From the IMG/VR virus record IMGVR_UViG_3300046616_000603, positions 1 through 64,000 of that record: a stretch of DNA of 64,000 nucleotides; one strand, written 5' to 3'. This document shows positions 1 through 39,100 of the stretch, piece after piece. Position numbers and translations under genes: made by a program. The notes beneath the pieces were generated by a model, which did no database searches, had not been told where the DNA came from, and saw only the letters and a list, made by a program, of their open reading frames with translations. This DNA is from a virus. Numbering within the stretch: position 1 is the first letter of the stretch; each line of letters starts with the position of its first letter.

Positions 1-978
1 ATGGCAGGTCCCGTAAAGGTAGATGGAAAGTGGCGCCACCGCGTCATGGTCAAGGGGAAACGCACTTCCGGAACGTTTGATACCAAGGCGGCGGCCCTAG
101 CTTGGGAGGCGGAGCAGCGGACCGCGCCGAGCAGCAAGCTAATTGCCACGACCCAAACCTGCCAGGATGCATTCGATCGCTACGAGCGTGAGGTCTCGAA
201 GTTAAAGAAGGGCTACCGCTGGGAAAGTCTTCGACTGGCGGCAACTGGCCGCACCGTGCTTCCTGCGTTTAACGACGTCACCCTGGGCTCGATTCGTGTT
301 GCGGATATCGATGCTACGCACATCGCCGCCTACCGCGATGTGCGCCTACAGACAGTAACCGGTGCCACTGTGGATCGCGAAATGACGCTGCTGTCGCATG
401 TCTTCACCATCGCGCGCAAAGAATGGAAATGGATCAGCACCAGTCCCACCGCTGACGTCAGCCGTCCCAAGGCCGCCCCGCCGAGGTTCCGCAGGATTAA
501 TCAAGAAGAGATCGACCAGATTTGCGTGGCGCTGGGGTGGCAGAACAAGGCACCGGTGACCGCGCAGCAGCGGGTGGCGGCGGCCTTCTTGTTTGCGATC
601 GAGACCGGCATGCGTGCAGGTGAGATTTGCAAGTTGACGAAAAACGACGTGACAGCGCCGGTGGCCAGGGTGCTGGACCCCAAGAACGGCGAGGACCGAG
701 ATGTCGCTATGTCGTCCCGTGCGGTAGAACTCTGGAAGATGGTGCCGGAGGGGTTCGGCATCACACCAGCGTCACTCGATGCGCTTTTCCGCAAGGCGCG
801 GGATGAGCGCACCACGATTAAAGATTTGCACTTCCACGACACCCGCCACGAGGCTATCACGCGACTGTCGAAGAAGTTGCACGTGCTGGCCTTGGCCCGA
901 ATGGTCGGGCACAAGGATATCAAAAAGTTGATGATTTATTACAACGAATCTGCGGAAGACATTGCATCACTTCTTTGA
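1..978 (+). CDS. int: Tyrosine-recombinase phage integrase
   Basis: Site-specific integrase that would join and excise the phage genome at att sites. The 325-aa protein has an N-terminal arm-binding/SAM-like region (about 1-150) and a catalytic domain. Visible catalytic residues are Arg205 (ETGMRAGE), a candidate Lys228, His279 and Arg282 (HDTRH), His304 (GHKD) and the Tyr at 313/314 (MIYYNES), so the active site is complete. The first base of the window is the A of the ATG, so its promoter and any upstream attachment site are outside view. Its 3' end overlaps the oppositely oriented excisionase-like gene by 12 bp, giving a convergent int/xis pair. Confidence 0.95.
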   Translation: MAGPVKVDGKWRHRVMVKGKRTSGTFDTKAAALAWEAEQRTAPSSKLIATTQTCQDAFDRYEREVSKLKKGYRWESLRLAATGRTVLPAFNDVTLGSIRVADIDATHIAAYRDVRLQTVTGATVDREMTLLSHVFTIARKEWKWISTSPTADVSRPKAAPPRFRRINQEEIDQICVALGWQNKAPVTAQQRVAAAFLFAIETGMRAGEICKLTKNDVTAPVARVLDPKNGEDRDVAMSSRAVELWKMVPEGFGITPASLDALFRKARDERTTIKDLHFHDTRHEAITRLSKKLHVLALARMVGHKDIKKLMIYYNESAEDIASLL

Positions 979-4274: not shown

Positions 4275-4393
4275 GCCAACCAGTTCCAGAGTAGGGCGGC
4301 GACCAGCAGTCCGTAGATGGCGAGGATGCCGCGCCACGTGTCTGCGCGTACAGCGCGGTCCTTGTCGGTGTTCGGTTCGTCGTTATGGTTCAT
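4271..4393 (-). CDS. Small single-pass membrane protein (40 aa)
   Basis: A charged N-terminus (MNHNDEPNTDKDRAVRADTW) is followed by one hydrophobic segment (GILAIYGLLVAALLWNW), so a single-span inner-membrane microprotein is likely. SD GAAAGGA lies 4 nt before the ATG, the start is 2 nt past the previous stop, and the TGA overlaps the next ATG. Coupling on both sides argues that it is real although it is short. Function unknown. Confidence 0.7.
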   Translation of the reverse strand: MNHNDEPNTDKDRAVRADTWRGILAIYGLLVAALLWNWLA

Positions 4394-4395
4394 GA

Positions 4396-4815
4396 TTATC
4401 CTTTCGTGATTTTCACTGCGCGGCCACCGCGCCACCGCCAGCCCGCTGCGATGACCTTGGTGCTGATCCAGTCACTCCGGCGCTTGTGATTCACGCGCGG
4501 CGGCGGCAGGAGATTTCCTTCCTCGTCCCACTGCATGTTCTCCACTTCAAAGAACTGCATCCAGTCATTGCGGGCGTCGCTCGCGTCCCACTCAGGCTCC
4601 CAGCCGCCGCAGTTGTAGATGCGGATTGGTACGCCGGCGATACGCTCCCAAGCGCGTTGAACATGCTTCGGCTGGCGCTGCATTCGGCGCCAGCCGCCCG
4701 GCGGGTCCATGACGCCCATGTCGGGGTCCGGCTCGTATTCACCCTCGTGGTGGCAATGACTGCGCAAAAGCTCCACCGCGCGCTTCGCCTGCTTCTTGTA
4801 GATGCGCGGGTTCAT
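4396..4815 (-). CDS. Hypothetical phage protein (139 aa)
   Basis: Trp- and Arg-rich soluble protein with motifs PPGGWRRMQRQPKHVQRAW and IRIYNCGGWEPEWDASDARN. No family is recognised. It begins at an ATGA overlap with the ASCH gene and is the second gene after the reversed membrane gene at 5216. It is an early leftward gene; no membrane segment or signal peptide is present. Confidence 0.7.
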   Translation of the reverse strand: MNPRIYKKQAKRAVELLRSHCHHEGEYEPDPDMGVMDPPGGWRRMQRQPKHVQRAWERIAGVPIRIYNCGGWEPEWDASDARNDWMQFFEVENMQWDEEGNLLPPPRVNHKRRSDWISTKVIAAGWRWRGGRAVKITKG

Positions 4816-26887: not shown

Positions 26888-27309
26888 TGATCTATGACCT
26901 CTCCCGCGCGGAGCGCCAGCACCGCGCCATCCAAAACGAAAAGCCCGGCCCGGTTCACCAGGTGAAGCGCTGCGCATGCGGCGCCAAAGTCACCGCGCGC
27001 CAACTGGGCCAGCACGGCAAGTGCGAGCACTGCCGCCTGACGGCCGGCCTCGCCGAAGGCGACCTCGACAAGCTGCGGCACATGCTCGGCGCAACGGCGC
27101 ACGACTCGAAATCGCACTGGGGCTTCCGCAACCACTACCTGTGCAACGTCCAGGACCGCGCGGCGATGGAGCGCTTGGTTGCGGCCGGCCTGGCGCGCGC
27201 CGGCGAGCAGCTGCTGCGCACGCAGTATTTCCACGCGACGCGAGACGGCTTCCGCGCCGCAGGCCTTGATCGTGCCGGCATCGCCCGTGCGCTGGAGGCT
27301 GTACTGTGA
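26887..27309 (+). CDS. Hypothetical zinc-ribbon protein (140 aa)
   Basis: MIYDLSRAERQHRAIQNEKP. Residues about 30-55 are a zinc ribbon ('KRCACGAKVTARQ' and 'GKCEHCRL'), then a compact helical domain ('HWGFRNHYLCNVQDRAAMER', 'EQLLRTQYFHATRDGFRAAG'). Unrecognised. Its TGA overlaps the GTG of the PAPS-reductase-like gene. Confidence 0.7.
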   Translation: MIYDLSRAERQHRAIQNEKPGPVHQVKRCACGAKVTARQLGQHGKCEHCRLTAGLAEGDLDKLRHMLGATAHDSKSHWGFRNHYLCNVQDRAAMERLVAAGLARAGEQLLRTQYFHATRDGFRAAGLDRAGIARALEAVL

Positions 27310-28535
27310 ATCAGGCCGATATCTTCGCAGTCGGCTCCACGCGGCTGCAGATGACTGACTCCATCGAGATGACGATCCAGTCGCTGTTGGCCTACGGCGC
27401 TTCGCACGATCACTGGGGCATCGCCTGGTCGGGTGGCAAGGACAGCAGCGCCACGCTGACACTGGTGATGTGGCTGCTAGATACCGGCCGCGTGCCGCGC
27501 CCGAAGACCCTGACTGTGTTTTACGCGGACACGCGGCAGGAGCTGCTGCCGCTGGCGCACGCCGCTAGCCAGATCATTGACGAGTTGCGCGAGCGCGGCA
27601 TTCAGGTCGAGATCGTCATGGCGCCGATGGATAAGCGCTTCATGGTTTACATTCTCGGGCGCGGTGTGCCGCCGCCAAACAACAACACGCTGCGCTGGTG
27701 CACACGGCAAATCAAGATCGACCCAATGCAGCACGCGCTGGAACAGCGGCTGGCCGAGCTGGACGGCCAAGTGCTGATGATCACCGGCGTCCGCCAAGGT
27801 GAGAGCGCCATCCGCGACCAGCGCATCGAGATGAGCTGTAGCAAGGACGGAGCTGAATGCGGGCAGGGGTGGTATCAAAAGGTGCTGCCCGAAGCGAAGG
27901 GCTTGCGCGGCCGACTCGCCACGTTGGCGCCGCTGCTGCACTGGCGCGTCTGCCACGTGTGGGAATGGCTGCGCCACTGGGCGCCCGGTGCGGAGTTTGG
28001 CGACTGGAGCACGGCCGCTATCGCCGAGGCTTACGGCGGCGACGAGGCCGAAGAGATCAATGCGCGCACCGGCTGCACGGGTTGCCCGTTGGTCGACACC
28101 GATATGGCGCTGGACAACATCCTGACGAACCCGCGATGGGCCTACTTGGCACCACTCAAGCGCATCAAACCGCTGTGGCGAGAGCTGCGGTTGCCGCGGC
28201 ACCGCCTTCGCAAAGCTGGGCTGGAGATCCTGAAAAGCGGAAAGGCTGCGGCAAATCCGCAGCGCATGGGACCGCTGACCTTTGAGGCGCGGCTGATGGG
28301 TTTGAGTACGATCCTCGCCATTCAGAACGAGGTGAACGATGCTGCGCGCGCCCAGCGCCGGCCAGAGGTGGACCTGATCAACCCCGAGGAAGAGGCGCGC
28401 ATCCGCGAGTTGATCGCACTGGAGACCTGGCCGGACGGCTGGGATGGCGACGAACCTCTGGCTACGACCATTATGGATACGGTCTACGCCAATGGCGCCG
28501 TGCAGCCGCTGTTGTTCTCGGAGGCTGATTCGTGA
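27306..28535 (+). CDS. PAPS-reductase/DndC-like PP-loop protein
   Basis: 409 aa, GTG start. The PP-loop SGGKDS (42-47) in 'WGIAWSGGKDSSATLTL' binds ATP. 'TLRWCTRQIKIDP', 'ITGVRQGES' and 'RTGCTGCPL' give the conserved Cys set of phosphoadenosine phosphosulphate reductase and DndC-like proteins, the latter able to hold an Fe-S cluster. The family covers sulphate reduction and DNA phosphorothioation; in phages its role is unsettled. The setting between two DNA methyltransferase genes favours nucleic-acid modification, but dndB/D/E homologues are absent here. Confidence 0.8.
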   Translation: MNQADIFAVGSTRLQMTDSIEMTIQSLLAYGASHDHWGIAWSGGKDSSATLTLVMWLLDTGRVPRPKTLTVFYADTRQELLPLAHAASQIIDELRERGIQVEIVMAPMDKRFMVYILGRGVPPPNNNTLRWCTRQIKIDPMQHALEQRLAELDGQVLMITGVRQGESAIRDQRIEMSCSKDGAECGQGWYQKVLPEAKGLRGRLATLAPLLHWRVCHVWEWLRHWAPGAEFGDWSTAAIAEAYGGDEAEEINARTGCTGCPLVDTDMALDNILTNPRWAYLAPLKRIKPLWRELRLPRHRLRKAGLEILKSGKAAANPQRMGPLTFEARLMGLSTILAIQNEVNDAARAQRRPEVDLINPEEEARIRELIALETWPDGWDGDEPLATTIMDTVYANGAVQPLLFSEADS

Positions 28536-34713: not shown

Positions 34714-35265
34714 ATGGGCTTTGCTGACCGATACCTGCACGCCGTAAATTCGTCCGACTTGCGCGATGATGAACATCACCACGCCACCGACGCGCTGTGC
34801 GCGGCCGCGCTGGCCGACACCACCGGCGCCGGTATTGGATCGCTTCTTTCGCGCGTAAAGTACGCCGACGGCACTCAGCACAAGCTGTTCGAATCGGGTA
34901 GTGCCAACCTGGGCAGCCTGTTGCGCATCTGGACCGCGCGCGTGATCGTCAAGGGACGCGAGCGCAAGTGGGTGAAGGAGGGCACCGCGTGGGACGCGCA
35001 GGCCGCCCAGGCGCTGTACCGCCGCGTTGCCGAGCGCTCGCTGGCCTACTGGCTGGACGGGAAGTGCCCGGCGTGCAGCGGCAGCGGCAACACTGCCGAC
35101 CGCCGTATCTGCGTTCCTTGCAGAGGCACCGGCAAGGCGGAGATCTCCGGCGCCGGAGGCTTCGAACTGGAGAGGGTCAAGGACATGGTGTCCGAACTGG
35201 AAGGTCTGCTTCAATCGCATAATACTCGCGCTTCGGTAATGCTGCGCAACAGCCAAGGAGCTTGA
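34714..35265 (+). CDS. DnaJ-type zinc-finger protein, candidate late regulator
   Basis: 183 aa. A CxxCxGxG pair ('CPACSGSGNTADRRICVPCR', then 'GTGK') forms a DnaJ-like zinc finger near residues 118-140. The position at the end of the early operon is that of lambda Q; Q also has a zinc motif, so a role in late antitermination is possible but unproven. SD AAGGAG. The 3' end (35170-35241) is duplicated at 37045-37116, on the other side of the serine-recombinase gene. Confidence 0.65.
   Translation: MGFADRYLHAVNSSDLRDDEHHHATDALCAAALADTTGAGIGSLLSRVKYADGTQHKLFESGSANLGSLLRIWTARVIVKGRERKWVKEGTAWDAQAAQALYRRVAERSLAYWLDGKCPACSGSGNTADRRICVPCRGTGKAEISGAGGFELERVKDMVSELEGLLQSHNTRASVMLRNSQGA
35170..35241 (+). 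repeat. Left copy of duplicated gene end (putative att)
   Basis: A 72-bp segment matching 37045-37116 at roughly 70% identity. The most conserved part is GGACATGGTGTCCG, whose first 13 bp (35181-35193) form a 5-3-5 inverted repeat. The two copies flank 1.8 kb that holds only a 56-aa gene and the recombinase. Confidence 0.65.
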
Positions 35266-35296
35266 TCCACATCAAACGGCGCGCGCACCGGTCTGG

Positions 35297-35302
35297 TAAT
35301 CT
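35297..35302 (+). promoter_or_regulatory. Possible extended -10 of 56-aa gene
   Basis: TGG-TAATCT, with the hexamer 35297-35302 ending 6 nt before the ATG at 35309. The hexamer is a weak match, but the geometry is that of the other leaderless genes. Confidence 0.4.
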
Positions 35303-35308
35303 GCGCTG

Positions 35309-35479
35309 ATGGACTACAGGACGAAAGCAATGTGCCGGGTGGCTCTGGACTTGGCAAGGATGCATGGGCTTCAGTTCGCTGCGGCGTTTCTGGCGGAGAA
35401 CCACGTTTCGATCGAGGTCGCTCTCTTTGTCCTCGTGAGACGAGAGACCGGAGGCGCATATAGTCGTGCTATCGTTTGA
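35309..35479 (+). CDS. Small protein accompanying the serine recombinase (56 aa)
   Basis: MDYRTKAMCRVALDLARMHG, then 'FAAAFLAENHVSIEVALFVL'. Helical. Similar small genes upstream of phage recombinases are familiar to me, but no function is known. It may be a directionality or regulatory factor. It has no SD, which fits a leaderless start. Confidence 0.6.
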   Translation: MDYRTKAMCRVALDLARMHGLQFAAAFLAENHVSIEVALFVLVRRETGGAYSRAIV

Positions 35480-35507
35480 AGGTATGGGTAACTGATTGAG
35501 GTGCGCC

Positions 35508-37046
35508 ATGCCATCAAGCAAGTCTACGGGCAGCGCCCGCGCGTTGGTTGGTAGGAAGGCTGCTTCCTACCTTCGAATGTCATCGGATGGGCAGGCGGGT
35601 TCAATCGCCAACCAGCGGGCGGCCATCGCCGCGTACGCGCGCCGCCACCGCATAGAGGTCGTCTCCGAGTACTCAGACCCCGGGAAGAGCGGGCTGGGGA
35701 TAAAAGGGCGGCCAGGTCTGCAGCGGTTATTGGCTGATGTCACCAGTAAGGACGTCGAGTACCACGTAATCCTGGTGTACGACGTCAGCCGATGGGGACG
35801 GTTTCAAGATGTAGACGAAAGCGCACACTACGAGTTCCTCTGTCGGAACGCCGGGATCGACGTGGTTTATTGTGCGGAAGAATTCGATAACGACGGCTCC
35901 GCGATAGCAGCAATCGTGAAGACGATGAAGCGCGCAATGGCAGCTGAGTACAGTCGCGCCCTGTCCGTGAAGGTGTTCGAGGCACAGACACGCCTTGCTC
36001 GGTCGGGATTCAAGCAAGGTGGGCCGGCAGGATATGGTTTGCGCCGCGCCTCGGTTGGGCCAGACGGCGAAATTCGTAGGGTCCTGGTGGCCGGAGATCG
36101 GAAAGGCGCGCCGGCCGACCACGTCATTTTCGTGTGGGGCCCGAGTCACGAGGTGGCCATTGTGCGCCAGATCTATGACTGGTACGTGAGCGGCGAGAAG
36201 GGCGACACTGCGATCGCCGCAGAACTAAACGCCCGTGGCATCACTTCGGAATCCGGCCGGACGTGGACCCCGCCGGTTGTGGTTAGCATCTTGACGAACG
36301 AGAAGTACATCGGCACCGTGGTGTACAACCGCAAATCATACAAGCTGCAGGGCGTGGTCTGCGACAATCCGCGCCAAGCATGGATCAGGAAGCCGAAAGC
36401 CTTTCCGGCCTTGATCGATTCGGCAGTTTTTCACCGCGCGCAGGAGATTCGCCGCGAGCGCGCGGAGCGCTACACGCGGCAGGAGTTGTTGGATATCCTG
36501 CGGCGCATCTATTCGGAACACGGCAAAATCTCGACGAAGCTGATCGATGAGTATCCGGACGGTCCACACCACAATGCGTTCCTGAACCGTTTCCAGACGC
36601 TCAGCAACGCATACCGTCTGGCAGGCGTGCCGGCCACGCAACGGGCCGATCGTTACCTGGACAGCTTACGCAAGACCGAGACTATCCGTAATGACGCGAT
36701 GGCAAAGGTCAAAGAATGTGTGGCAGCCGCTGGCGGTACGTTTGATCCGCTGCCGTCGAAGAACACCTTCGTTTTGAACGGCGCCGCACACACACGGTTG
36801 CTTGTCGTCCGGGCGCGCCGCAATCGCGAGGACCGGCCGTACCGTTGGAGCTTTCCCCTACGCGAGGTCGCAGGAATACATTTCATTATTGCAATCCAAC
36901 TTGAGCCATCAAACTCGGCTGTGCGCGGTTTGTATCTTTTACCAGTTGACGTTGTTCGCTATCCCACACTTGTCATGCGCGAGGAACGTCCTGACGAGTT
37001 CGCGAGGTGTCGCTATTGTTCGATTGATGCTCTATTCGGGACCTGA
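35508..37046 (+). CDS. Large serine recombinase
   Basis: 512 aa. The N-terminal resolvase domain has 'AASYLRMSSDGQAGSIANQR' with the nucleophile Ser25 and 'VYDVSRWGRFQD'. A recombinase domain follows ('FKQGGPAGYGLRRASVGPDG', 'TSESGRTWTPPVVVSILTNE', 'KYIGTVVYN'), then a long C-terminal region without an obvious zinc ribbon. The start at 35508 has GAGG upstream. The TGA overlaps the first base of the duplicated segment at 37045, so the gene reaches right to the putative attachment site. Confidence 0.9.
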   Translation: MPSSKSTGSARALVGRKAASYLRMSSDGQAGSIANQRAAIAAYARRHRIEVVSEYSDPGKSGLGIKGRPGLQRLLADVTSKDVEYHVILVYDVSRWGRFQDVDESAHYEFLCRNAGIDVVYCAEEFDNDGSAIAAIVKTMKRAMAAEYSRALSVKVFEAQTRLARSGFKQGGPAGYGLRRASVGPDGEIRRVLVAGDRKGAPADHVIFVWGPSHEVAIVRQIYDWYVSGEKGDTAIAAELNARGITSESGRTWTPPVVVSILTNEKYIGTVVYNRKSYKLQGVVCDNPRQAWIRKPKAFPALIDSAVFHRAQEIRRERAERYTRQELLDILRRIYSEHGKISTKLIDEYPDGPHHNAFLNRFQTLSNAYRLAGVPATQRADRYLDSLRKTETIRNDAMAKVKECVAAAGGTFDPLPSKNTFVLNGAAHTRLLVVRARRNREDRPYRWSFPLREVAGIHFIIAIQLEPSNSAVRGLYLLPVDVVRYPTLVMREERPDEFARCRYCSIDALFGT

Positions 37047-37116
37047 GCGCGTGCTGGACATGGTGTCCGGGCTGGAAGGCCTGCTCCAATCGCACAACGC
37101 ACGTGCAGGAATTATG
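37045..37116 (+). repeat. Right copy of duplicated gene end (putative att)
   Basis: Matches 35170-35241. In frame it encodes 'ERVLDMVSGLEGLLQSHNAR', against 'ERVKDMVSELEGLLQSHNTR' in the intact gene, and the frame runs on to a TGA at 37138-37140. It is a gene-end remnant with the same GGACATGGTGTCC core (37056-37068). 37141-37277 shows no gene. Confidence 0.65.
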
Positions 37117-37277
37117 CCTCGGGGCGTGACTGGAGTTTGAGGTGCCAACAGATACCGCGCTGGCATTCTCGCCGAGGGACCAGATTGTGCCGAGCTGTAG
37201 AAGTGGGCTACCTAAAAGCGGAAAGGTGCTACGATTGTTCAGGCAGCGAGCCCAAGCTACCGCAGCACCCCGGCTAA

Positions 37278-38027
37278 TCATTTCCCCATCGTGTAGGTGT
37301 AAATTACCGTTATAGCCAAGCGATTTTTTTCTTTATAGCGGATCGCATTCTCGCCAGTAGGTAGTGGCTGATTTGCCTTAATGCCGTCTCCAAGTTCTTT
37401 CGAATACGGTTCAACTGAGAGGCCGATACCGAGGTTGTGGGTCGACTTATCGCCATCATTCGGTTTGAAAGCGACGAGCCATCCCAGCGTTACTGAATCC
37501 ATTAGCTTTTTATCGCCGAATAGACTGGCACCGACGAACACACCCTGACGGAAGTGCAGGTTATCAAATCGCTCGGTGAAGTACCAGTGCCGCTCCAGCA
37601 TCAATCGAGGGACGACATCACGTTCGCTGGAAACGCGCACCACGCCGTTGACGAGCTGCGCCTCTTCAATTGCTGATCCGCGTTTGCCTAGCTTCGTGGA
37701 TACTGCCAATCCGACACCGAAATTGTTCCAAAATTCATCGTTTTTCGATGCATTGCCATTTGCCTCATCGGCAGCTGCTTTTGCCTTCGCTGCTTTTTCT
37801 TTCGCGGCTGCAGCTGCTTTTTCCGTGTCGGCTGCTGCTTTGTCTGCATCCTCCACTTTCTTTTTTGCCAACTCGGCTTTTTGGGCCTTAAGGGCGTCGA
37901 TAGTTTTTTGAGCCTCTTCAATTTGTTTGTCGATCGCAGCACCATCGGCTGGAGCGGCGCCTTGTTGTTGTGCAGATGCGCCTGCAGAAAGTAGGCACAT
38001 TGCTGTGATGATCACAAAGTTTTTCAT
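37278..38027 (-). CDS. Reversed secreted coiled-coil outer-surface protein
   Basis: 249 aa. Signal peptide MKNFVIITAMCLLSAGASAQ, then a long Ala/Lys/Glu coiled coil (DKQIEEAQKTIDALKAQKAE to about residue 90), and a beta-rich C-terminal half that may form a barrel ('NNFGVGLAVSTKLGKRGSAI', 'LMLERHWYFTERFDNLHFRQ', 'LAITVIYTYTMGK' end). Likely periplasmic or outer-membrane. SD AGGGGG. It faces against the late operon with its own promoter and lower GC: a probable lysogenic conversion gene. Confidence 0.8.
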   Translation of the reverse strand: MKNFVIITAMCLLSAGASAQQQGAAPADGAAIDKQIEEAQKTIDALKAQKAELAKKKVEDADKAAADTEKAAAAAKEKAAKAKAAADEANGNASKNDEFWNNFGVGLAVSTKLGKRGSAIEEAQLVNGVVRVSSERDVVPRLMLERHWYFTERFDNLHFRQGVFVGASLFGDKKLMDSVTLGWLVAFKPNDGDKSTHNLGIGLSVEPYSKELGDGIKANQPLPTGENAIRYKEKNRLAITVIYTYTMGK

Positions 38028-38093: not shown

Positions 38094-38388
38094 TAATAAT
38101 TGTTAATTTGAAACCACGGCGCAACAAATTGCAAATTGATAGTGCCGCGTCTGACGTCTCTAGCCCAGATCGGAGGGCATGGTCAAATAGCTCAATTTTT
38201 ACTCTATCTAAGTCGATACAGTTGACTTACCAATCGGAGTACGTTAACGTCCGTCCAACACACTCACCGCACTCGTAATGCAGGCTTATAGCCTCACCGA
38301 TAGCAGTGATTCGAGGCTAGCACCGATCCTTTGATGCTTTCGCTCGCGTGTACCGCTCACTTCGCAGATAGCGCTGGAGCACCAACGA
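38094..38388. other. AT-richer intergenic region, no gene seen
   Basis: Between the reversed gene's promoter and the next terminator. A 63-codon plus frame (38087-38278) has poor composition and no SD. TTGACT (38223-38228) could be a -35 for rightward transcription, but no convincing -10 follows. Confidence 0.4.
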
Positions 38389-38411
38389 AGCCACCCTTGC
38401 GGTGGCTTTTT
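38389..38411 (+). terminator. Hairpin terminator before 47-aa gene
   Basis: Stem AGCCACC/GGTGGCT with loop CTTGC and a T-run, followed by CTATTTCCG. The same T-run/ATTNCCG ending follows the terminators in the head and tail genes. Confidence 0.7.
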
Positions 38412-38440
38412 CTATTTCCGCGCCTGTTTGCGAGGCCGCT

Positions 38441-38584
38441 ATGCCGAGTACCCCGACTTCCGCCGACTACCTCGCCCGGATCCGCTGGGTGCGGATGTGC
38501 ATGGCGCTGCTCGCGATGCAGGACGACATGGCCGCCGCGCGGGAAGCTGCCGCAGCGCTGCCGCGCAAGCCTGCACGCTGGTAG
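38441..38584 (+). CDS. Hypothetical 47-aa protein
   Basis: MPSTPTSADYLARIRWVRMC, then 'MALLAMQDDMAAAREAAAAL'. Helical, amphipathic. The start at 38441 directly follows the terminator module. No SD is obvious. Unrecognised. Confidence 0.5.
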   Translation: MPSTPTSADYLARIRWVRMCMALLAMQDDMAAAREAAAALPRKPARW

Positions 38585-39024: not shown

Positions 39025-39100
39025 GCCGTCATAGCTCAGGTGGAAGAGCGGCTGCCTTGTAAGCAGCGGGTCCAGGGTTCGAATCCTTGTGATGGCACCA
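39025..39100 (+). tRNA. tRNA-Thr (anticodon UGU)
   Basis: 76 nt with encoded CCA. Acceptor arms GCCGTCA and TGATGGC pair (one G-U); D arm GCTC...GAGC; anticodon arm GCTGC-CTTGTAA-GCAGC gives anticodon TGT; T arm CAGGG-TTCGAAT-CCTTG. It lies inside the phage, 1.5 kb upstream of the terminase, between two short genes, so it is phage-borne rather than an attachment site for the integrase 39 kb away. Confidence 0.95.

What the first reader, a model, noticed from the sequence alone, without database searches (positions are those of the whole stretch)
35170..37116. Minimal serine-recombinase element inside the phage, flanked by a duplicated gene end
A 72-bp segment at the 3' end of the zinc-finger gene (35170-35241) recurs at 37045-37116, starting within the recombinase stop codon. 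Between them lie only a 56-aa gene and a 512-aa large serine recombinase. The shared core GGACATGGTGTCC has 5-3-5 symmetry. This looks like an element that integrated into the zinc-finger gene and either restored or swapped its end.
Basis: partly seen in the sequence, partly recalled or inferred. Interest (0 to 1): 0.65.

Follow-up and report, generated by a model that had tools for sequence, protein, structure and literature searches.

The report
Recombinase gene beside duplicated gene end
In a group of bacterial viruses, a small DNA-recombining gene sits just after a zinc-finger gene and is followed by a leftover end of another virus's copy of that gene; related viruses show the same junction, even stacked twice, which suggests that such elements pile up at one fixed spot.

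Summary
In detail: 35170-35241 recurs at 37045-37116 (52/72 identical; next best place in the window 37/72), with only a 56-aa ORF and a 512-aa large serine recombinase (LSR) between. The 13-nt palindrome is real but not a conserved core (1 of 70 relatives). The interval between the zinc-finger (zf) gene and a promoter-like block at 38237 is a cargo slot in 60-70 kb prophages of Duganella-type hosts: empty in some, filled with assorted genes in others, LSRs among them. The right-hand copy is not a target duplication. It is the 3' end of a divergent zf gene from another phage lineage (81% to G050, 69% to its own left copy), followed by other cargo. The arrangement recurs with diverged LSRs in the opposite orientation (G032, G033, G036), stacked twice in G032/G033. 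Joints fall at zf codons 149-153, and an uninterrupted relative (G171) aligns exactly from codon 149 rightwards. Best reading: LSR elements carrying their own replacement zf end insert there and layer outward, as SCC elements do at rlmH. Against: five LSR phages lack the second end, homologous exchange is visible here, and the window's left zf end looks native. No recombination was shown. New variant of a known kind.

The parts
34714..35265 (+). Zinc-finger (CxxC...CxxC, DnaJ-like) gene, 183 aa, function unknown; placed between replication genes and late genes
   Evidence: ORF; 45 viral records and 70 of 392 genomes of the Duganella family have a match; weak DnaJ zinc-finger match in 27 of 28 members
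35158..35265 (+). Left (proximal, working) copy of the zf 3' end, codon 149 to stop; modelled as one C-terminal helix (residues 149-182)
   Evidence: AlphaFold model
35309..35479 (+). 56-aa ORF, a small protein that accompanies this LSR family
   Evidence: Homologues beside LSRs in phages and Duganella chromosomes
35508..37046 (+). Large serine recombinase, 512 aa, Resolvase + Recombinase domains, invariant catalytic-region residues (S25, R95, R98)
   Evidence: Pfam PF00239 and PF07508; PHROG integrase; alignment A1
37045..37140 (+). Right (distal, relic) copy of a zf 3' end, codon 153 to stop, from a different phage lineage
   Evidence: alignment to G050 starts exactly at TGAGCGCG
37278..38027 (-). 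Cargo (moron-like) gene, 249 aa, 63% match in the same slot of G014
38237..38446 (+). Conserved block closing the slot (TTGAC...GTACGTTAACG promoter-like start)
   Evidence: 73-94% identical block in more than 20 relatives

Best explanation
The slot between the zf gene and the conserved block takes up cargo, and the LSR with its 56-aa partner is a minimal mobile unit that works there. The likely mechanism is that the LSR recombines at a fixed place in the zf gene, codons 149-153, the start of the C-terminal helix. The incoming unit brings its own version of the zf 3' end, so zf stays intact, and the recipient's old 3' end with its cargo is pushed outward. Because the new zf gene still holds the target, the next unit can insert at the same place, giving layers with the newest next to zf. 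Shown: the repeat, its origin in a second zf lineage, the recurrence, the fixed joint, the uninterrupted relative and the double layer. Inferred: that the LSR makes the joint, that a circle exists, and the direction of layering.
For: Distal zf ends follow LSRs of two diverged branches (about 40% aa identity) in opposite orientations: window/G001, and G032, G033, G036. Joints lie at codon 153 (window), 149 (G032/33/36), and about 150-151 in a third copy at record 69416-69506 next to a likely LSR C-terminal relic. Three independent joints within 5 codons by chance: 0.002. LSR-less G171 is collinear with G033's outer zf end and cargo from exactly GGCTTCG, with no similarity to the left. Distal ends are closer to other phages' zf genes than to their own. 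G029 (zf-LSRb) matches the inner unit of G032/G033 over 1.8 kb including the zf end. The LSRa and LSRb genes end inside the zf end on the other strand, so zf end and LSR form one unit. The 48-nt outer end of LSRa and LSRb units is 85% alike where the neighbouring coding DNA is 68-70%, as expected of an attachment half-site. LSR domain architecture intact.
Against: G008, G034, G035, G027 and G029 have the LSR without a second zf end. In G009 the unit is instead flanked by two copies of the conserved block. In the window, zf body and left end are both of the G345/G005 type while the right end is of another type, so the left end need not have come with the element. G034/G035 show exchange of zf end plus LSR 3' end as a tract starting near codon 138, which is homologous recombination. 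G305 has a decayed zf end from about codon 140 with no LSR found. Of 145 LSR loci of the wider family compared, only the phage ones above have a repeat placed like this; one chromosomal locus (L088, 479 nt, 70%) has a long flanking repeat that I did not examine. Search by the zf 3' end favours short relics.
Confidence: 0.48

Rival explanations
1. Ordinary phage mosaicism: the LSR is just another cargo gene. Rare illegitimate joints, plus frequent homologous exchange between related phages, joined the end of one phage's slot to the zf 3' end and cargo of another; the relic has no function.
For: Slot contents vary freely. A homologous exchange tract crosses the zf end in G034/G035. G305 and G009 have other duplicated joints. 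Five LSR phages have no relic. Two genuine lineages are seen in each pair.
Against: All three joints that border an LSR lie within 5 codons (P 0.002); no distal copy longer than about the last 45 codons was found; two LSR branches share the joint and the outer-end sequence.
Confidence: 0.32
2. Arm exchange: the LSR recombines a site at its own outer end in one phage genome with the zf site of a co-resident phage, making a hybrid with the left arm of the first and the right arm of the second. The unit itself never circulates.
For: Explains LSR phages without a relic as parents and those with a relic as hybrids; explains why zf body and left end are of one type and the right end of another in the window.
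Against: The reciprocal product (zf cut at codon ~149 and joined to downstream DNA) was not seen; the outer ends of relic-free LSRa/LSRb units differ from those of arrays.
Confidence: 0.15
3. Target-site duplication or in-place duplication of the zf end made when the element inserted.
For: Two direct copies flank the element.
Against: Copies differ by 28% over the 72-nt stretch, with many synonymous changes, and each is closer to a different phage's zf gene; serine recombinases are not known to duplicate targets (general knowledge).
Confidence: 0.02

Closest known systems
SCC / ECC elements (CcrAB or CcrC large serine recombinases at the 3' end of rlmH)
   Same: LSR-driven insertion in the 3' region of a conserved gene, direct repeats of about 50 bp as att sites, multiple attR sites downstream (PMC6222049)
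   Different: Here the target is a phage gene, the unit is about 2 kb, the repeats are diverged gene ends rather than near-identical att sites, and mobility is not shown; no direct comparison with Ccr proteins was made
Helper-embedded PICIs (PMC10111431)
   Same: Mobile element inside a gene of a prophage, with repeated tropism for phage genes
   Different: They interrupt late genes and use an integrase/AlpA module from one integrase clade; the text holds no mention of serine recombinases; much larger
Morons / cargo slot after a regulatory-position gene in temperate phages
   Same: Variable genes, often on the opposite strand, between the zf gene and a promoter-like block
   Different: Here recombinases themselves occupy the slot and leave zf 3' ends behind
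Chromosomal proteobacterial LSR pairs (Duganella: LSR - 56-aa ORF - LSR)
   Same: Same LSR family and same small ORF; homology stops close to the LSR stop codons
   Different: Two divergent LSRs, no flanking gene-end repeat

Membership tests
Large serine recombinases | N-terminal resolvase domain with catalytic serine plus Recombinase domain | tested here: met
   PF00239 E 5.5e-23, PF07508 E 1.3e-20; S25, R95, R98 invariant
Large serine recombinases | Site-specific recombination between attP and attB | not testable with these tools
   Needs reads or an assay
SCC-like 3'-end-restoring LSR element | Insertion at a fixed site in a conserved gene, gene kept intact | tested here: inconclusive
   Joints at codons 149-153 and intact zf in all array phages; relic absent in five LSR phages
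SCC-like 3'-end-restoring LSR element | Tandem elements separated by att-like repeats | tested here: met
   G032 and G033: zf-LSRa-zf end-LSRb-zf end-cargo; that the repeats act as att sites is inferred
SCC-like 3'-end-restoring LSR element | Ccr-type recombinase | not tested
   No direct comparison with Ccr proteins was made
Ordinary moron (passive cargo) | Gene present or absent between the same flanking genes in relatives, no mobility function | tested here: inconclusive
   Presence/absence met; the gene is a recombinase with conserved active-site residues
Helper-embedded PICI | Integrase/AlpA module inside a helper late gene | tested here: not met
   Only a serine recombinase and a 56-aa ORF lie between the repeats

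The most novel reading that the evidence does not exclude
A phage-borne minimal recombinase element that carries a replacement for the last helix of its target protein, so each insertion rebuilds the target site next to the gene and older gene ends and cargo accumulate outward as a readable record of successive insertions.
Probability: 0.33. Interest if true: 0.68.

Novelty: new variant of a known kind. Interest (0 to 1): 0.47.

Why it matters
If true, it shows how temperate phages load a cargo slot without losing the gene they insert into, gives a serine recombinase whose target is rebuilt at each insertion (useful for stacking DNA at one site), and makes the order of insertions readable from sequence. 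It also predicts that the recombinase itself, not only homologous exchange, drives mosaicism at this point.

Tried and rejected
Palindrome as crossover core: only 1 of 70 zf genes has it. Target-site duplication: copies too diverged and from different lineages. LSR as the prophage integrase: the record starts with a tyrosine integrase and the LSR lies mid-genome. Outer-end motif elsewhere: other exact hits in viral contigs lay next to no zf or LSR and are taken as chance. Flanking repeats as a trait of the whole LSR family: among 145 loci only the phage ones above, plus an unexamined long repeat in L088. Naming the zf protein by fold: model only moderate (pLDDT 69), no significant match in PDB or BFVD, so its role as a late regulator stays a guess from position. 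G272 zf split: a 0.9-kb insertion that looks like a transposase gene, unrelated. G317 has a one-base frameshift near codon 149, not interpretable. A gene-end swap read from G034/G035 turned out to be a homologous exchange tract.

Full report
What is there. The window is 64 kb of a 70,375-base virus record that starts with a tyrosine integrase gene. The zf gene (34714-35265) is followed by a 56-aa ORF (35309-35479), an LSR (35508-37046), a second zf 3' end (37045-37140) and a minus-strand gene (37278-38027). The two zf ends match at 52/72, nine standard deviations above the mean of all positions and well clear of the next best place at 37/72. A second contig, G001, shows the same arrangement over 11.4 kb with one mismatch.

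The slot. I fetched 46 viral loci with the zf gene, scanned whole records and 392 genomes of the family that holds Duganella (70 with a match), and took mostly 6-13 kb around many of them. Between zf and a conserved block with a promoter-like start (window 38237) relatives have nothing (G005 and G011, 13-14 bp), or 0.4-5 kb of unrelated genes, often on the minus strand. The LSR is one kind of content.

Arrangements of the LSR. Window/G001: zf, 56-aa ORF, LSR(+), zf end, cargo, block. G008 (LSR 81%): zf, ORF, LSR(+), block, no second end. G009 (LSR about 52%): zf, cargo, block, ORF, LSR, block. G034, G035, G027: zf, LSRa(-), block. G029: zf, LSRb(-), cargo, block. G036: zf, LSRa(-), zf end, cargo, block. 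G032 and G033: zf, LSRa(-), zf end, LSRb(-), zf end, cargo, block. LSRa and LSRb are 39-41% identical to the window LSR.

Origin of the second ends. Each distal end is closer to the zf gene of another phage than to the zf gene of its own genome: window right copy 81% to G050 against 69% to its own left copy; G036 88% to G029 against 76%. They are thus left-over ends of other lineages' zf genes. G171, which has no LSR in this slot, matches the outermost zf end and cargo of G033 in one stretch that begins exactly at GGCTTCG, codon 149, and has no similarity before it.

The joint. In G032, G033 and G036 similarity to zf starts at codon 149; in the window at codon 153, inside TGAGCGCG shared with the recombinase stop. 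Outside the window, at record 69416-69506, a third zf end begins at about codon 150-151; upstream is a stretch that resembles an LSR C-terminus (44% over 18 aa, E 4e-4 against G008) next to a piece of integrase gene, so a prophage relic. Three independent joints within five codons have a chance of about 0.002 if joints were uniform over 165 codons. Codon 149 is the start of the modelled C-terminal helix. In LSRa and LSRb units the recombinase reading frame ends inside the zf end on the opposite strand, so the zf end and the LSR are physically one unit. The outer 48 nt of the two units are 85% alike while the coding DNA next to them is 68-70%.

Reading. These facts fit an LSR unit that inserts at zf codon ~150, supplies a new zf end and leaves the old one outside, so that units stack. 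The same logic is known for SCC and ECC elements at rlmH (PMC6222049). Family-wide, this is not a general trait of these LSRs: of 145 loci compared, the short flanking repeats occur only in these phages, with one chromosomal long repeat (L088) left unexamined.

Limits. No recombination was observed. Five LSR phages have no second end. Homologous exchange clearly works across this very place: G034 and G035 are 96-98% identical through most of the zf body up to about codon 138, then about 81% through the zf end and the LSR 3' end, where G035 is 94-98% like G032, then mostly 97-100% again. In the window phage, zf body and left end both resemble the G345/G005 type, which fits a hybrid or plain mosaic joint as well as an insertion. 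G305 has a decayed zf end from about codon 140 without an LSR. I therefore give the insertion model 0.48, passive mosaicism 0.32, and LSR-driven arm exchange 0.15. The function of the zf protein is unknown; a late-regulator role is only a guess from its place after replication genes.

Noticed in passing
record 69186-69235 and 69416-69506 (outside the window, L072): Near the right end of the record lie a fragment of an integrase gene start (88% over 50 nt to window 70-119), a likely LSR C-terminal relic and a third zf 3' end: remains of an older related prophage.
   Followed up: partly
L085:3143-6497 and L154:3044-6497: In Duganella chromosomes this LSR family occurs as a divergent pair with the 56-aa ORF between; in L154 a third LSR piece and two genes that look ParB-like from their sequence lie beside it.
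   Followed up: partly
L054:2430-2578 and 4371-4593: In G009 the LSR unit is flanked by two copies of the conserved block (86% and 84% to G008's) instead of two zf ends.
   Followed up: partly
L059 and L079 (G011): A second complete zf gene lies near the right end of the G011 record (67884-68414), possibly a tandem prophage.
   Followed up: no
window 39025-39097: A tRNA gene (Rfam, 63.9 bits) lies just downstream of the slot, before the metallopeptidase gene.
   Followed up: no
window 38237-38446: The conserved block after the slot has a promoter-like TTGAC...TTAACG start and short inverted repeats, possibly the late promoter and leader.
   Followed up: no
window 27306-28535: The phage carries a PAPS reductase gene (PHROG 12882, E 2.5e-232).
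   Followed up: no
L260:1461-2397 (G272): A zf gene is split by a 0.9-kb insertion that looks like an IS transposase.
   Followed up: partly
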